Assembly (NCBI RefSeq): GCF_013201825.1
Contig: NZ_CP053836.1
Span: 2,356,001-2,420,000 of the forward strand
Length of the DNA: 64,000 nucleotides
Direction: 5' to 3'
Source: Halarcobacter ebronensis
Lineage (GTDB): Bacteria > Campylobacterota > Campylobacteria > Campylobacterales > Arcobacteraceae
Shown piece after piece: positions 4,127 to 58,963 of this stretch (position 1 is its first letter; every line of letters begins with the position of its first letter). The notes beneath the pieces are model-generated. The model was not told the origin of the DNA, searched no databases, and was given only the letters and a program-made list of their open reading frames with translations. Made by a program: the position numbers and the translations under genes.

Positions 4127-5761
4127 TTAACCTAAATTAGGCAAATTATGGGGTAAGATAATAGTAAACTCTGCCCCATTTTCAATATTCCTTGCTTCAA
4201 TTGTTCCATTAAACTGATTTTTTATAATTATCTCTGACATATAAAGCCCAATACCTGTTGAAGCCTTCTCTTTTTTTGTATTAAAAGGTTTAAAGACATC
4301 TTTTATAGGCTCAATTTTTATTCCACCAGCATTGTCAGAGATGATCAATATAGTATGTTTTTCACTATCTTTTAAAGTAATTGTAATAGTAGGTGAGTCT
4401 ATTTTATCTGATTTTATAATATCAATACTATTTTGTATAATTGAGAGAACAATCTGCGCTAAACTATTTAGATTTCCAAAGATTTTTATTTTTGAATCTA
4501 TCTGCTTTTTTAACTCAATTTGATTTAGTTTTATTGAAGAAGAGACAATTTTAAGAGCTTGTTCAATGGCTGTTTGAGGATTAAAAATAGTATTATCACT
4601 CTTTTTATAAAAATCTTGAAAATTCGTAATGGTTTCAGACATAAATTGAATAATCTCCTCATTTGCAATTGTCTCTTCTATTATCTCTTTATCTTTTGAT
4701 TTTTTTCTAATATACATACAATTAAAGTTTAATTGAGCCAATGGTTGTCTCCATTGGTGGGCAATAATTGCAATCATCTCTCCCAAAGCTGCAAATTTTG
4801 ATTGCTGTTGTAAAATTTTGTCATTTAACTTCTCTTTTGAAATATCTTGAATATTTGCAACAATCGCAATATCCCTATTCTCTCCACTTGTTCCAAAAGA
4901 GATTCTAATAGGAAATTTTTTTCCATTTTTATCTTTCCCTTTAGACTCTTGAACCTTTTTTAAACTCTCTAAATCATTAATATTATATTTATCCAAAACT
5001 ATTTCATTGAATTTTGTCTTATTTAACATCTCTTCTTTTGTATATTTAAATATCTTTTCTGCTTCACTATTAAAAGTTCTTATCTTCATTTTGCTATCTA
5101 AAGTAATTATTGCATTTCTACTTGATTCAATAACAGCATTTGAAAACTCTTTCTCTCTTATTAACTCTTCTGTGCGACTATTAATTTGTCTACTTGCTGG
5201 CATAAAGATAAAAATTGCTTCAAAAAGTAGAGTAAGAAGAGTAAGAATCAGAATATATGTCTCTACTTTTTGTAGTTTCCGTGTATTTTCAGAAGCCTCT
5301 TTTAAATATACAACTACAGCTTTTTCTAAATCAAGTAGAAGTTTTTCTGAATTTTTTAGTACATAATTTTGACTTCGCCCATCTCTGTGAACATAAAATC
5401 TTTTAGCATGAAAAAGATAAGTTTTTACCTTCTCATCTAAGTTTACCTCTTTCCCAAAATAGATTGAGTGTAATTCCTCTGACATTTTTAAAGAGGTCAA
5501 AATATTATGGGTTTTTTCCATCTCAATTATTTTTGCTTTTAGTTTATCAATTTTGTAATAGATTGCATAAAAAGCAATTTCTCTTGTAATTATTTTTTGA
5601 TTCCCACTCATATTAACTAGTTGTGCATCGTTTGACTGAATTGATAAGAGTTTACTTAAATTAAAAAAAGCTAGTATTGATAGAAAAGCAATAATAGTAA
5701 GAGCTAAGATATATCTTTTGGTAAGACTTAAACTTTCGTGCATAGGCATCCTAATCATCAT
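4127..5761 (-). CDS. Sensor histidine kinase with NarX/PilJ-like periplasmic domain and PAS
   Basis: 544 residues. Two membrane segments (about 16-36 and 165-185) bracket a periplasmic helical domain that begins with NMSGNQKIITREIAFYA. This resembles the P-box helix of NarX/NarQ and PilJ-type sensors. A PAS domain (about 205-310) follows, then the H-box AHQWRQPL (His about 335), N-box NSIDII, G1 DNAGGIK and G2 GIGLYMS. The response regulator is transcribed divergently 53 bp away. Lying between nosY and nosZ, the pair is a candidate regulator of nitrogen-oxide respiration. The ligand is unknown; nitrate or nitrite is suggested only by the P-box likeness. Confidence 0.88.
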   Translation of the reverse strand: MMIRMPMHESLSLTKRYILALTIIAFLSILAFFNLSKLLSIQSNDAQLVNMSGNQKIITREIAFYAIYYKIDKLKAKIIEMEKTHNILTSLKMSEELHSIYFGKEVNLDEKVKTYLFHAKRFYVHRDGRSQNYVLKNSEKLLLDLEKAVVVYLKEASENTRKLQKVETYILILTLLTLLFEAIFIFMPASRQINSRTEELIREKEFSNAVIESSRNAIITLDSKMKIRTFNSEAEKIFKYTKEEMLNKTKFNEIVLDKYNINDLESLKKVQESKGKDKNGKKFPIRISFGTSGENRDIAIVANIQDISKEKLNDKILQQQSKFAALGEMIAIIAHQWRQPLAQLNFNCMYIRKKSKDKEIIEETIANEEIIQFMSETITNFQDFYKKSDNTIFNPQTAIEQALKIVSSSIKLNQIELKKQIDSKIKIFGNLNSLAQIVLSIIQNSIDIIKSDKIDSPTITITLKDSEKHTILIISDNAGGIKIEPIKDVFKPFNTKKEKASTGIGLYMSEIIIKNQFNGTIEARNIENGAEFTIILPHNLPNLG

Positions 5762-55636: not shown

Positions 55637-56033
55637 GGGGGTGACTTGGTATCGATTAGAGCAGTGAGGATCAGTTGCATGTCGGCCTGAGCATGCCGTT
55701 ACGCGGCTCATTTTTTTTAGACGCAAACAATACAAATTACGCTCCAGCTTACGCAAAAGCTGCGTAAGTTTAACAACTTATAGGACTCGCCTAACGGCTT
55801 GAGACCTCGGAGGTTCACTCAGTAGATTCTATCTATGCTGATTATAGTGGATTCACCCAGATAGATTATCTTAAAAGGATTGATTGACCTTTTTTGAGAC
55901 ATTTTAAATCTTAGCTTTTTAGTTGCCTTGCGAGTTGTGCTGCTAGAAAGTGAAATTTTACAACTCCTCTAAACATGTAGACGCTGGTAGTAATTGTTTT
56001 AAGACTCCGGTTCAATCCCGGACACCTCCACCA
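55637..56033 (+). ncRNA. ssrA: tmRNA
   Basis: 397 bases. The 5' GGGGGTG pairs with 3' CACCTCC, followed by ACCA, so CCA is encoded. T-arm TCCGGTTCAATCCCGGA is present. The tag frame runs from GCA at 55723 to TAA at 55767 and encodes ANNTNYAPAYAKAA, close to the campylobacterial tag. It rescues stalled ribosomes. Its 3' end is a common integration target, and accessory DNA follows; no repeat of the 3' end was found nearby. Confidence 0.96.
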
Positions 56034-56165
56034 TATTTCAGAAAAATTACAAAAACTTTTAATAGGATTGTGCTCACTGAGAGTGGCACAAATAATCTTG
56101 CATTTTTTTCAAAGATTTCAACAATAAAACCTATGGTTTTATAATCTCTATTGTGCACACGCTTA

Positions 56166-56222
56166 TTACTTTTTGGTGTCAAAAAGTAATAAAGCGCTAC
56201 TCTCGAAGAGAGAGCAAGAGAA
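56166..56222 (+). repeat. Hairpin repeat, copy A (left of SatD module)
   Basis: A perfect 13-bp stem TTATTACTTTTTG/CAAAAAGTAATAA (56163-56192) is followed by AAGCGCTAC and CAAGAGAA. The same order (stem, AAGCGCTAC, CAAGAGAA) recurs at 57913-57970 on the same strand. The TTGTGCACAC at 56151-56160 recurs inverted at 57986-57995. Confidence 0.65.
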
Positions 56223-56280
56223 TCTACAAGCTTTAGCTTTTAGTAAAAGAGGTCATTACTCTATAAAGTATGAAAAAAAT

Positions 56281-56883
56281 TTAACTTCCTTTTGGATTGT
56301 GAGTAACTGAACTAAGAATATAATCTACAATACCTAAATTATTAATTTTATCAAAAGCTATAAATACCATTGAAATCACAATTGCAAACAATAAACTTAA
56401 CATCGAACCTATTAAAAAATATTCAGCCTTGATTTGTTTATCTATCTCTTTATATCTAGCAATAGTTTTAAACACAATAACAATAGATATTAACGTCCAA
56501 TTTTGAGATACTACCCCTATAAAATATAATATTCTTTCAATAAAACCTATAATTCTAGAATTGTTATCTACTTCTATATCACTATTTTTATCTAATGGTT
56601 TAACTGTTTCAATAATCTCTTCTATGATTGTCTCAGTAGATGTAGAGTTGTTAGTTATTATTTTCTTTATTTTTGTTTGATTTTCAGATTTTTCTGAACT
56701 TGTATTAGTTTTTATTTTCAATATTATATTTTCTATAAAGTCATTGACACAATACAATAACACTAAACTTGTAGAAAATAGAAAAATAATAGAAAAAAAT
56801 CTATTTAAACCGATATCAAAACATTTAGATACAAGAGTAAATATAACAATTGATAAAAAAATAAATATAGATGATTTATTCAA
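56281..56883 (-). CDS. Membrane partner of SatD-like protein
   Basis: 200 residues with two N-terminal membrane segments (about 5-25, 30-50), a charged, Thr/Glu-rich cytoplasmic linker (about 55-110) and two C-terminal segments. The C-terminal part reads IGFIERILYF, VFKTIARYKEI, AEYFLIGSMLSLLFAI. From memory this matches the C-terminal region of proteins annotated DUF3307 that often neighbour SatD. The usual DUF3307 N-terminal motif is missing. It overlaps the SatD-like gene by 8 bp. Confidence 0.6.
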   Translation of the reverse strand: MNKSSIFIFLSIVIFTLVSKCFDIGLNRFFSIIFLFSTSLVLLYCVNDFIENIILKIKTNTSSEKSENQTKIKKIITNNSTSTETIIEEIIETVKPLDKNSDIEVDNNSRIIGFIERILYFIGVVSQNWTLISIVIVFKTIARYKEIDKQIKAEYFLIGSMLSLLFAIVISMVFIAFDKINNLGIVDYILSSVTHNPKGS

Positions 56884-57562
56884 TACTATTTCCTCTCTCT
56901 AGATTTAAATCTTTAAAATAGGTCTTTTCTAATTTTTTAGTGTCATTTTCAAATGATAATTCTATATGCTCAAATATATTTGTCACTAAAATATATTTAG
57001 ATCTCTCGGCAAAATAATATACTGCTCTTTGTTTTATATGCATTAACTCTTCTATCTCTTTTAAATTTTTATTTTGAACAACTTTATAATATAAAAAATC
57101 TTTTTGTTTATCTGTTAAGTTTGATAAACAATCTTCCAAAAGAGTTCCTATACTATTTAGCAATATAGTTTTATAAATTTCATCTTCAATATAAAAGCTG
57201 TATTTTTTTTCTTTTTTATCTAAAATTTCATTTATATTTGTTAATCCTGAGCCCAACATTCTAGAGTGGTCATTTTTATTTATTTCTCCAGAAATAGTTC
57301 CATAACCCAACGCAAAACGGCACTCTATATTTTTTGATAAAAATGAGATATCTAAATAAAAAAGCATCTGTAAAAGAGTCTTAATATCTTTCATTACAAC
57401 TTGAAAATCATCTCCAACTTTAACTTCTAATTTTGAAAGAGTACTATTTTCAAATTTTTTCTGTGAATTAGAAATAATATCTATCATAATTTTTGACAAT
57501 TCATTTGAATCAAATTTTCTACTATTTTTTATGTCACCCATTAATATAAAGTATCTACTCAT
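56876..57562 (-). CDS. SatD-like protein with cyclase-like metal-site pattern and HTH
   Basis: 228 residues. ILMGDIKNSRKF (Asp10), KVGDDFQVV (Asp51/Asp52) and CRFALGYGTISGEI (about 81-94) follow the order of the SatD family. They also recall class III/GGDEF cyclase folds, where two Asp bind metal and a GD-E/D-F hairpin lies in the site. Residues about 145-185 (LTDKQKDFLYYKVVQNKNLKEIEELMHIKQRAVYYF) are a sigma-r4-like helix-turn-helix. First gene of a two-gene unit with a membrane protein. Function unknown. Confidence 0.65.
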   Translation of the reverse strand: MSRYFILMGDIKNSRKFDSNELSKIMIDIISNSQKKFENSTLSKLEVKVGDDFQVVMKDIKTLLQMLFYLDISFLSKNIECRFALGYGTISGEINKNDHSRMLGSGLTNINEILDKKEKKYSFYIEDEIYKTILLNSIGTLLEDCLSNLTDKQKDFLYYKVVQNKNLKEIEELMHIKQRAVYYFAERSKYILVTNIFEHIELSFENDTKKLEKTYFKDLNLERGNSIE

Positions 57563-57614
57563 TTTATCTCACTAATCTTTAGATTATAAAATAATACAAT
57601 ATATAATCTTAATA

Positions 57615-57701
57615 TTGCATGTTTTAATATGCAATTTACACTTTTGCATCTTTTAATGTGCAATTTATACTTTTGCATGTTTTAATGTGCAATTGAACCT
57701 T
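57615..57701. repeat. Three 29-bp tandem repeats at the SatD promoter
   Basis: Units start at 57615, 57644 and 57673 with exact 29-bp period; consensus TTGCATGTTTTAATGTGCAA plus a 9-bp link. Each unit is itself an inverted repeat (TTGCA...TGCAA). They lie 53 bp upstream of the SatD-like start, so they look like operator iterons, perhaps for the HTH of that protein. Confidence 0.8.
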
Positions 57702-58291
57702 CATTCTTCTTTCCAACCTCTGCAACTGCCGAAAAAATATAAAAGTATTTATGATAAGCGTGAGGAGTGTTTGAATAATAAAAAGAGACAAATTCTCTTT
57801 TTATTATGAGTTCCTCAACGCAATAAATATTTTTATATTTTTGAGGGGATTTGCTTTAGCAAATAGTGAAGCCGTTGGTAGTTTTTCTCAAAAAGAGTGC
57901 AAGCACAGGCAATACTTTTTTCTATAAAAAAGTATTAAGCGCTACGCTTTGCAAAAGAGTACAAGAGAACTTGTGCAACACAAAGTGTGCACAAAAAAAC
58001 ATGAAAAACCATTTAAAATAATCCCTAAAAACACAAAAAAATTATTCAAAAAAGAAAAATCATACCTTTTTTGTCTTATTTTACAAAAAAATAAATCTTT
58101 TTTTAAAAAATATACAAATTTTATATAAAAAATAATACTATTTAAAGCCCTTTAAAACAACCATTTATAGGATAAATAAATTAAAAATAACCAAAAAGTA
58201 TCTTCAAAAGTAAATATTATAAATATTTTTTATTACTATTAAAATACTCTCTTCTTTTATACTTTCAAAATATCTTATAAAAGGATTTATA
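57702..58291. other. Gene-free stretch with long hairpins
   Basis: Holds a 110-bp imperfect hairpin (57733-57842; inner arms AATAATAAAAAGAGA/TCTCTTTTTATTAT around CAAAT), the copy B repeat, and then AT-rich DNA without an open frame up to the kinase-like gene. The last 50 bp provide its ribosome site (AAAAGGA). Confidence 0.6.
57913..57970 (+). repeat. Hairpin repeat, copy B (right of SatD module)
   Basis: Stem AATACTTTTTT/AAAAAAGTATT (57912-57937), then AAGCGCTAC and CAAGAGAA, as in copy A and on the same strand. Together they bracket the SatD-like module. Confidence 0.65.
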
Positions 58292-58963
58292 ATGAGTAAT
58301 AAAACATATTTAGAGTTGGCAAAAGAGCAATTGACTTCGCCATTAGACTACATTTTAAATAGTGCAAAAAGATTGCAAATAACAAATTGTAAAGAGACAA
58401 TCAATGCAATTGGTGAAGAGATAAAAATTGAAATAGATAATATTAATTTTCAAATAAATAATATCTCATATTTAGAGCAAATTGATCACTCAAAGTTAGA
58501 GTTAAAAAGAAACAGTGTTGATTTTGATAGATTGATTAATAAAGTCTTAGATGATATATTACATCTTACAAAAATTAGACAAATAAAGATTGAAATTGAT
58601 AGTCATAAAAGCAATGAGTTCTCTTCTGATCTAAAGATGCTTTACACAATTTTAGTAAATCTTATTGCAAATGCAATAGAGTTTTCATACAATAACACAA
58701 CAATTCATGTTGTACTTTTTGAAGGACATGACAACTTCAAATTTATTGTAAAAAATGATGGCAGAGGTATAAAAAATGAGATTTCAAATAAAATCTTTGA
58801 CAAATTTTACCAGTCAAATGATAGAGTTATAAGAATTCAAAAGACTCAAGGATTGGGACTATTTGTAATAAAAAACTTAGTTGATTTCTTACAAGGTTCA
58901 ATTGAGTTTGATTCAAAAGAGAATGGTACAACTATCTTTGAAATAACTCTTCCAAAACTTTAA
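58292..58963 (+). CDS. Orphan histidine-kinase-like ATPase without phospho-acceptor His
   Basis: 223 residues. The C-terminal GHKL ATPase is intact: N-box LVNLIANAIEFS, G1 NDGRGIKNE, F-box FDKFYQSND, G2 TQGLGLFVIKN. The N-terminal helix reads AKEQLTSPLDYIL where kinases have S-H-E-L-x-T-P-L, with Glu at the His position. There is no sensor or membrane part. It may be a phosphatase, an anti-sigma-like kinase or a decoy. It lies alone between the SatD island and pgi. Confidence 0.8.
   Translation: MSNKTYLELAKEQLTSPLDYILNSAKRLQITNCKETINAIGEEIKIEIDNINFQINNISYLEQIDHSKLELKRNSVDFDRLINKVLDDILHLTKIRQIKIEIDSHKSNEFSSDLKMLYTILVNLIANAIEFSYNNTTIHVVLFEGHDNFKFIVKNDGRGIKNEISNKIFDKFYQSNDRVIRIQKTQGLGLFVIKNLVDFLQGSIEFDSKENGTTIFEITLPKL

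What the first reader, a model, noticed from the sequence alone, without database searches (positions are those of the whole stretch)
56151..57995. SatD-like/membrane two-gene module bracketed by repeats next to tmRNA: candidate undescribed system
Two overlapping genes (SatD-like with cyclase-like Asp and GDDF pattern plus HTH; four-helix membrane protein) lie directly after ssrA. Similar hairpin repeats with the same order of motifs flank them (56166-56222 and 57913-57970), and a 10-bp perfect inverted pair TTGTGCACAC/GTGTGCACAA marks the outer ends (56151-56160, 57986-57995). A nucleotide-making protein paired with a membrane effector is the layout of several signalling and phage-defence systems. 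The link to such systems is inference.
Basis: partly seen in the sequence, partly recalled or inferred. Interest (0 to 1): 0.72.

Follow-up and report, generated by a model that had tools for sequence, protein, structure and literature searches.

The report
Self-regulated cyclase-fold and membrane gene pair
Next to the tmRNA gene sits a two-gene unit, a DNA-binding protein with the fold of a signal-making enzyme plus a small membrane protein, preceded by a row of repeated DNA switches that recurs in distant bacteria and archaea and looks like an undescribed guard or stress module.

Summary
The two genes are real: SatD-like (56876-57562, minus) and a membrane protein (56281-56883, minus), overlapping by 8 nt. 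The modelled SatD N-domain has the class III cyclase fold (Z 12.7), both metal aspartates are invariant in 54 of 54 relatives, and a helix-turn-helix follows. The bracketing hairpins are copies of a dispersed intergenic family, not module borders. Dyad letters differ between lineages but the layout recurs: 75 of 94 satD upstreams choose a 28/29-bp period when 16-45 is allowed (56 with z>=3), against 319 of 4700 shuffles and 1 of 33 control genes. A membrane gene follows satD in 76 of 86 Bacteroidota loci, and satD and partner share the same 4 of 398 genomes of the order. The ssrA-pgi interval is a hot spot that holds a retron, a nuclease or a toxin-antitoxin-like pair in three sisters; 20 Bacteroidota satD neighbourhoods show no defence enrichment. 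Best reading: an autoregulated module in which SatD restrains a membrane effector. Nucleotide synthesis, DNA binding, toxicity and phage defence are unproven.

The parts
56876..57562 (-). satD-like gene, 228 aa: class III cyclase-fold N-domain (about 1-130; Asp10 and Asp51 invariant) plus C-terminal HTH (about 142-190)
   Evidence: ORF; Pfam SatD 32.6 bits; model m0fadbff95652; PDB matches; family alignment A7
56281..56883 (-). membrane partner gene, 200 aa (TTG start); C-terminal ER...K..R...EYFLIG..S domain homologous to the C-terminus of DUF3307 proteins
   Evidence: ORF; alignments; profile comparison with DUF3307-type partners, probability 97.3, E 2.1e-11; strong matches in the same 4 genomes as satD
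57615..57634 (.). dyad 1 of the tandem operator-like array (satD-proximal)
57644..57663 (.). dyad 2, 29 bp from dyad 1
57673..57692 (.). dyad 3, 29 bp from dyad 2
57583..57612 (-). promoter-like TTAAGA-18-TATAAT ahead of satD; its -35 lies 2 nt from dyad 1 (consensus match only; the region has 30 such matches, 17.9 expected)
56197..56217 (-). terminator-like hairpin downstream of the membrane gene, inside the left dispersed repeat (consensus match only)
56166..56240 (+). left flank: 3' part of a dispersed intergenic repeat element; not part of the module proper
57700..57970 (+). right flank: full copy of the same dispersed repeat element; not part of the module proper
56151..56160 (.).
57985..57994 (.). 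its reverse complement GTGTGCACAA (one base left of the stated place)
55637..56033 (+). ssrA (tmRNA), left border of the variable ssrA-pgi interval; integration site in sister genomes

Best explanation
This is a sporadic, self-regulated two-gene module. SatD is a one-component regulator: a class III cyclase-fold, metal/nucleotide-binding sensor domain fused to a helix-turn-helix. Dimers of SatD bind the three 20-bp dyads set 29 bp apart at the satD promoter, probably cooperatively, and hold the operon at a low, buffered level. The second gene encodes a small membrane effector that SatD keeps in check, by repression and perhaps also by nucleotide or direct contact. When the SatD signal is lost or its nucleotide pool is disturbed, the membrane protein is released or over-made and acts on the inner membrane. 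Shown here: the gene pair, its co-occurrence, the fold of the modelled N-domain, the invariant metal Asp residues, the C-terminal HTH by sequence, and the array with its recurring period. Inferred: binding of SatD to the array, the sign of regulation, nucleotide binding, and toxicity of the partner.
For: Fold: the 50 rows shown are all class III cyclases or Cas10/Cmr2 palm proteins; best Rv1900c CHD Z 12.7, rmsd 2.5 over 129 residues, with Foldseek agreeing. D10, S14, G50, D51 and G104 are invariant in 54 of 54 aligned SatD proteins. C-terminal HTH: Pfam and the family profile against PDB HTH proteins.

Array: with the period left free between 16 and 45, 75 of 94 satD upstreams (57 of 71 representatives) choose 28 or 29, against 319 of 4700 shuffles; 56 of 94 do so with z>=3. 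Among control genes of the same loci 1 of 33 chooses 28/29 and 0 of 33 reach z>=3, against 43 of 71 satD representatives. The 28-29 bp prediction was written down before the Bacteroidota loci were fetched. Six further plasmid loci: 2 choose 28/29 with z>=3 (Vibrio lentus, z 12.7; Haloplanus, z 3.9, a close relative of an already used locus), one chooses 27/28 (z 3.8), 3 fail. The dyad pattern occurs three times without mismatch in the 3.17-Mb genome, all upstream of satD.

Partner: 76 of 86 Bacteroidota satD genes are followed on the same strand within 150 nt by an ORF with at least 2 predicted membrane segments. In 398 genomes of the order the four strong SatD genomes and the four strong partner genomes are the same. 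Window-type and DUF3307-type partners share a homologous C-terminus.

Restraint: satD is reported as the single accessory gene in the upper essentiality range of S. pyogenes transposon studies (178/249 genomes; PMC11323703, passages read), as expected if it restrains a harmful neighbour. Mobility: the site is variable and holds other cargo in three sisters.
Against: No binding, expression or toxicity was measured. 19 of 94 upstreams do not choose 28/29, among them L002, which is 62% identical to the window SatD, and L097, L101, L103 and L114 of one Bacteroidota group; four more of that group (L100, L102, L104, L105) choose 28/29 only at z<=1. 3 of 6 further plasmid loci fail. Operator similarity tracks HTH similarity only weakly once the N-domain is accounted for (39 loci, partial r 0.16, 6 of 999 permutations as large), and tracks the N-domain more strongly (0.30), so co-evolution of HTH and dyad is not shown. 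The HTH part of the model has low confidence. I did not see the genes next to satD in S. pyogenes, and the essentiality may have another cause. In Bacteroidota the pair is common (79 of 395 genomes, 70 over the cut-off) and not near PADLOC-type genes more often than controls, which fits a housekeeping role too.
Confidence: 0.5

Rival explanations
1. Inhibitory or activating nucleotide signalling as in Panoptes or Pycsar: SatD is an active nucleotidyl cyclase whose product binds the membrane partner; the HTH and array only set expression. Loss or gain of the nucleotide during phage attack triggers the partner.
For: Class III cyclase/Cas10 palm fold with both metal Asp invariant; synthase-first, membrane-effector-second operon; Panoptes uses a palm-domain synthase that holds a toxic membrane effector in check (PMC12657218 and PMC12657230, passages read); satD essential although accessory in S. 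pyogenes; a retron sits at the same site in sister G010.
Against: The class III transition-state Asn/Arg positions read as Thr108 and Glu112 in the window protein and vary in the family (my reading against the recalled motif). The partner shows no recognisable nucleotide-binding domain. PADLOC finds no PycC, and no effector better than E 0.58. No PADLOC enrichment around Bacteroidota satD. The word SatD does not occur in the main text of either Panoptes paper.
Confidence: 0.22
2. Envelope or acid-stress housekeeping pair: SatD senses a nucleotide or metal state and regulates a membrane stress protein that is not toxic; its presence in the hot spot is incidental.
For: The sat genes are associated with acid tolerance in S. 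mutans (statement in PMC11323703). The pair is common in Bacteroidota, 79 of 395 genomes. SatD was found in few plasmid records (7 of 72,556 with each of four queries) and in no phage record of 50,697.
Against: Sporadic in Campylobacterota, 4 of 397 genomes, own included, and absent from 15 of 15 congeners. The exact dyads sit only at its own promoter, which fits a local rather than a regulon-wide stress regulator. Essential-but-accessory status in S. pyogenes is odd for a stress gene.
Confidence: 0.2
3. The flanking repeats and the 10-bp inverted pair are the ends of a small mobile element that carries the two genes.
For: Both repeats and the 10-mer pair lie on either side.
Against: The repeats are direct, unequal, and members of a dispersed family. 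The genome holds a single SatD match, so the other copies do not bracket a satD. Modules in A. vitoriensis, G371 and G328 carry the dyad array; whether they also carry the dispersed repeat was not tested.
Confidence: 0.04
4. The 29-nt array works as RNA (tandem hairpins in the leader) rather than as DNA operators.
For: The dyad symmetry is kept while the letters change between lineages, which RNA stems would also show. In many loci the array ends close to the start codon (median 21 nt in 56 clear cases).
Against: In the window the array lies upstream of the best-scoring promoter-like site ahead of satD (consensus match only), so it would not be transcribed with satD. Rfam matched only the tmRNA in this window at gathering thresholds. 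SatD carries its own HTH.
Confidence: 0.04

Closest known systems
SatD family (PF16264) with DUF3307 (PF11750) membrane partner
   Same: Same N-domain (32.6 bits over a cut-off of 29), same gene order, homologous partner C-terminus, same 28/29-bp dyad layout.
   Different: The window partner has no DUF3307 match; the window SatD is about 15-25% identical to most Bacteroidota SatD in the alignment.
Class III nucleotidyl cyclases (Rv1900c, Ma1120)
   Same: Fold over residues 1-146 and the two metal Asp.
   Different: Fused to an HTH; the canonical transition-state Asn/Arg are not conserved by my reading; no activity known.
Panoptes (OptS mCpol + OptE 2TM-beta)
   Same: Two-gene operon of a palm-fold protein and a small membrane protein; both fit a restrained-effector logic (passages).
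   Different: SatD has an HTH and a DNA dyad array; the partner shows no recognisable soluble beta-barrel by sequence; SatD is not named in either main text.
Pycsar (PycC + PycTM)
   Same: Class III cyclase fold with a membrane partner; one SatD-DUF3307 pair lies 73 bp from a Pycsar system (L167).
   Different: No PADLOC PycC or PycTM match for the window pair.
Autoregulated toxin-antitoxin modules
   Same: Small overlapping pair, local operator-like sites, sporadic distribution, accessory-yet-essential regulator in S. pyogenes.
   Different: Toxicity untested; the partner is a membrane protein and SatD has a cyclase-like domain.

Membership tests
SatD family (PF16264) | Pfam profile match over the curated cut-off | tested here: met
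   32.6 bits against 29; the match covers positions 1-94 of 211
SatD family (PF16264) | C-terminal HTH and downstream membrane partner (as seen in the relatives read here) | tested here: met
   HTH; partner
Class III nucleotidyl cyclase | Class III cyclase fold | tested here: met
   Z 12.7, rmsd 2.5, 129 residues to 1ybt; predicted model from 4 sequences, pLDDT about 86 over residues 1-130
Class III nucleotidyl cyclase | Two metal-binding Asp | tested here: met
   D10 and D51 in 54 of 54
Class III nucleotidyl cyclase | Transition-state Asn and Arg | tested here: inconclusive
   Window reads GSGLTNINEIL where the recalled motif is G-x-x-x-N-x-x-x-R; by-eye alignment only
Class III nucleotidyl cyclase | Cyclase activity | not testable with these tools
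   needs enzymology
Pycsar | PycC cyclase profile | tested here: not met
   PADLOC: 0 families for SatD at E<=1
Pycsar | PycTM / 4TM effector profile | tested here: not met
   only PADLOC match of the partner is '4TM effector' at E 0.58
Panoptes | mCpol synthase and 2TM-beta effector | tested here: inconclusive
   fold rows include Cmr2/Cas10 but no mCpol profile was compared by name; the 2023 PADLOC predates the Panoptes papers
DUF3307 | PF11750 match in the partner | tested here: not met
   no DUF3307 match for the window partner at E<=1; C-terminal homology to DUF3307-type proteins only
Toxin-antitoxin module | Partner toxic and relieved by SatD | not testable with these tools
   needs expression test
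Toxin-antitoxin module | Local operator at own promoter | tested here: inconclusive
   three mismatch-free dyads, all upstream of satD, none elsewhere in the genome; binding itself untested

The most novel reading that the evidence does not exclude
SatD-partner modules are an unrecognised, domain-spanning class of guard system. A cyclase-fold protein coats a conserved helical row of dyads spaced 28-29 bp (about 2.7 turns) and at the same time restrains a membrane effector by a nucleotide it binds or makes. Disturbance of that nucleotide, for instance by a phage, both derepresses the operon and frees the effector.
Probability: 0.15. Interest if true: 0.9.

Novelty: new variant of a known kind. 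Interest (0 to 1): 0.7.

Why it matters
SatD and DUF3307 are family names without an assigned mechanism in what I could find, and satD is the one accessory gene that scores as essential in published S. pyogenes screens (PMC11323703, passages). This work ties them into one operon with a conserved partner domain, a cyclase fold fused to an HTH, and a shared 28/29-bp dyad layout found in Bacteroidota, Campylobacterota, some Proteobacteria and two related haloarchaeal plasmids. I found no paper that describes this in the open PMC library. The searches were SatD (30 of 318 papers listed), DUF3307 (1 paper), SatD family (1), satD with sat operon or S. mutans (15 of 17 listed), SatD with phage and defense (2), SatD with cyclase (4 of 5 listed) and satD/satE with acid tolerance (5 of 17 listed); subscription papers are not held there. 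It makes concrete tests possible: binding to the array, partner toxicity with and without SatD, and nucleotide binding by Asp10/Asp51.

Tried and rejected
Repeats as module ends: rejected. Defence enrichment around Bacteroidota satD: tested on 20 loci, the nearest 7 ORFs of at least 130 and at most 900 aa (satD and partner left out), 139 of 140 proteins scanned, against 140 proteins at shifted places in the same 20 genomes: 13 against 14 PADLOC families at E<=1e-15, so no enrichment; many matches on both sides look to me like general helicases or proteases. Hand-picked neighbours: 8 proteins of 4 loci scanned, matches in 3 loci, none for the Vibrio Rpn protein. Co-variation of HTH and dyad letters: weak and not specific. 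A first array score that used palindromicity alone was not discriminating; a score that adds unit-to-unit similarity replaced it, chosen after I had seen the first. Of 87 satD matches, 86 were used; an 83-aa fragment in G793 was left out. The 71 representatives were thinned by protein 3-mer overlap only among the Bacteroidota set and remain related, so the binomial figure overstates independence; satD z-scores rest on 50 shuffles and control z-scores on 30. Start codons were set by rule, nearest ATG to the profile match. Carriage on viruses: the viral-contig scan with A3 gave no relative, the scan with A7 could not run, phage records gave none. Rfam at gathering thresholds: only tmRNA. Partner structure: model too poor to search with. 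PDB sequence profile: N-domain only weakly to cyclase Ma1120, E 0.18. All 30 papers listed for SATD look like unrelated uses of the letters.
Full report
WHAT IS THERE. The tmRNA gene lies at 55637-56033. Facing it, on the minus strand, lie a SatD-like gene (56876-57562, 228 aa) and a membrane protein gene (56281-56883, 200 aa), which overlap by 8 nt. SatD matches Pfam SatD over its cut-off, and a sigma-70 region 4-like HTH lies at residues 142-189, below that profile's cut-off. The partner matches no Pfam family over its cut-off.

THE REPEATS ARE A DISPERSED FAMILY. The right-hand element (57700-57970) has 15 matches in this genome and the left-hand piece (56166-56240) has 11, counting self-matches and both-strand hits of one hairpin; for the right-hand element these lie at 11 other places. 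Alignment shows that the left piece is only the 3' part of the same element, in direct orientation. 20 of 60 genomes searched, own included, have a match. The 10-bp pair is real (2 found, 0.05 expected; right copy at 57985-57994), but its core is self-complementary and the same 10-mer sits in another copy of the family (L011). On the minus strand the left repeat also carries a terminator-like hairpin at 56217-56197, just downstream of the membrane gene (consensus match only).

THE MISSED FEATURE: A TANDEM DYAD ARRAY. Three 20-bp dyads of the form TTGCAT-N8-(A/G)TGCAA lie at 57615-57634, 57644-57663 and 57673-57692, 29 bp apart, with a promoter-like -35 (57607-57612) 2 nt from the first (the region has 30 promoter-like matches where 17.9 are expected). 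In the whole 3.17-Mb genome the dyad pattern occurs three times without mismatch, all here; two further places differ by 2 bases. Among 104 family genomes a longer pattern with up to 3 mismatches was found in three: this one (1 site), G309 (12 sites, at two contig ends; by its contig length this is A. vitoriensis) and G371 (1 site). In A. vitoriensis the array has about 10 tandem units upstream of satD before the contig ends. In G371 and G328 the layout is the same but the arms are TTGAA..TTCAA, and G328 has two more units downstream of the partner gene.

THE ARRAY RECURS AT satD GENES. Having written down the 28-29 bp prediction, I collected 86 of the 87 satD matches found in 79 of 395 genomes of the phylum of L004's genome, a Flammeovirgaceae MAG, hence Bacteroidota (an 83-aa fragment was left out; 70 of the 79 genomes are over the family's cut-off). 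To these came the window, L002, L003, L043, L044 and three plasmid loci. On the 170 nt upstream of each start I searched for three units, with palindromic arms and similar to each other, at any period from 16 to 45. 75 of 94 chose 28 or 29 (57 of 71 thinned representatives); dinucleotide shuffles did so in 319 of 4700. 56 of 94 chose 28/29 with z>=3. Upstreams of 33 other genes in the same loci chose 28/29 once, and none reached z>=3, against 43 of 71 satD representatives. Of six plasmid loci fetched later, two chose 28/29 with z>=3 (Vibrio lentus z 12.7; Haloplanus z 3.9, closely related to a locus already used), Pseudoalteromonas chose 27/28 (z 3.8), and Segatella, Sphingomonas insulae and Salinivibrio failed. 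The 19 of 94 that do not choose 28/29 include L002 and several members of one Bacteroidota group. Dyad letters differ widely between lineages while the period stays. The median gap from the last dyad to the start codon is 21 nt in the 56 clear cases.

SatD PROTEIN. AlphaFold with a four-sequence alignment gave pLDDT 74 overall and about 86 for residues 1-130; the HTH part is poorly modelled. Foldseek and VIA-align place residues 1-146 on class III cyclases (Z 12.7, rmsd 2.5, 129 residues to Rv1900c; each of the 50 rows shown is a cyclase or Cas10/Cmr2). In 54 aligned SatD proteins D10, S14, G50, D51 and G104 are invariant. The recalled class III transition-state Asn and Arg appear as Thr108 and Glu112 in the window protein by my reading, so activity is uncertain while metal/nucleotide binding is likely. 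A family profile finds HTH proteins for the C-terminus and, weakly (E 0.18), cyclase Ma1120 for the N-terminus.

PARTNER. 81 of 86 Bacteroidota satD genes have a same-strand ORF within 150 nt, and 76 have one with at least two predicted membrane segments, often overlapping by 4 nt; two of the five without an ORF are at contig ends. A recurrent C-terminus, G-x-x-ER...K..R...EYhLIG..hS, is seen by eye in short (105-115 aa), middle (window) and long (about 240 aa, DUF3307-type) partners. Profile comparison of window-type with DUF3307-type partners gives probability 97.3, E 2.1e-11. In 398 genomes of the order, SatD has four strong matches and one weak (8.8e-4), and the partner four strong and one weak (5.3e-4); the four strong genomes are the same, the weak ones differ.

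LOCATION. 15 of 15 other genomes of the genus lack this SatD, although all 16 genus genomes have the tmRNA gene. In none of the 15 sister stretches downstream of ssrA (3.4 to 12.9 kb, some cut by contig ends) was there a protein match to SatD, its partner or the HATPase gene at 58292. Upstream synteny reaches through ssrA in several sisters and nucleotide similarity then stops. In the three sisters whose interval to the same pgi gene I read, it holds other cargo: G010 a tyrosine integrase, a phage-type replication protein and a retron-like RT with a DUF3800 protein (PADLOC 4e-74 and 6.2e-25); G014 an integrase in two ORFs, an Mrr-type nuclease and an exact copy of the ssrA 3' end about 4 kb away; G002 a nucleotidyltransferase/HepT pair. 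So ssrA-pgi is an integration hot spot that takes defence-type cargo. Elsewhere, a Sphingomonas plasmid carries SatD-DUF3307 73 bp from a Pycsar system (PycTM 9.7e-31, PycC 4.3e-183), with a ThsB-like TIR gene (7.2e-98) 2.3 kb on the other side; Agrobacterium pAt has a HerA gene (7e-159) 2.4 kb away; the L002 SatD is divergent from an ATPase that matches PDC-M68B (3.5e-16) and LmuB (9.2e-12); a fourth locus, Vibrio lentus, gave no PADLOC match for the one neighbour scanned. These four were picked by hand. A systematic test on 20 Bacteroidota loci found no enrichment.

MECHANISM. Best reading: SatD binds its own array through the HTH, senses a nucleotide or metal state through the cyclase-like domain, and restrains the membrane partner. 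The report that satD is accessory yet essential in S. pyogenes (PMC11323703, passages read) fits this, but I did not see the neighbouring gene there. Panoptes (PMC12657218, PMC12657230; passages read) shows that a palm-fold synthase can restrain a toxic membrane effector; the word SatD occurs in neither main text. Whether SatD binds the array or makes a nucleotide, and whether the partner is toxic, is untested.

NOVELTY. SatD and DUF3307 are named families. The PMC searches (some listings were capped, see Why it matters) returned no study of their joint function that I could recognise. The papers seen in passages mention satD as an essential accessory gene, as an acid-resistance family, as a down-regulated gene and as an sRNA target annotated as DNA-binding; DUF3307 is mentioned once, in a jumbo phage gene table. 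The fused cyclase-HTH layout with a fixed-period dyad array and a co-occurring membrane partner is, as far as these searches go, undescribed.

Noticed in passing
L003:1-298 (A. vitoriensis, contig end): The dyad array has expanded to about 10 near-identical 29-nt units, and 3 more sites sit at the start of another contig of G309, so the true length is hidden by an assembly break.
   Followed up: partly
L044:2609-2667: Two further 29-nt units downstream of the partner gene, so this module has its own array on both sides.
   Followed up: no
L007:553-1524 and L009:2422-3393: A 323-aa ORF, the same in both by eye, that looks like an IS110-type transposase (my reading, not scanned) lies just 5' of two other copies of the dispersed repeat, as if that insertion element targets it.
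   Followed up: no
L151:378-402 and 4326-4350 (G014): Exact duplication of the ssrA 3' end (25 bases searched, 26 aligned) about 4 kb apart, with an integrase in two ORFs directly after ssrA: attachment-site scar of an integrated element.
   Followed up: partly
L150:4600-6205 (G010): Reverse transcriptase plus DUF3800 protein matching PADLOC type VII retron models at the same ssrA site.
   Followed up: partly
window:58292-58963: Short HATPase_c protein without a HisKA match over its cut-off, beside the module in the variable interval; no protein match to it in the 15 sister stretches downstream of ssrA.
   Followed up: partly
L097, L100-L105, L114: A Bacteroidota group whose satD has the HTH but no clear array (z at most 1.0); L101 and L114 have a non-membrane ORF downstream.
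   Followed up: no
L167:2947-10437 (Sphingomonas insulae plasmid): SatD-DUF3307 pair 73 bp from a Pycsar system and 2.3 kb from a Thoeris-type TIR gene, the clearest defence setting seen; it has no clear dyad array by the score.
   Followed up: partly
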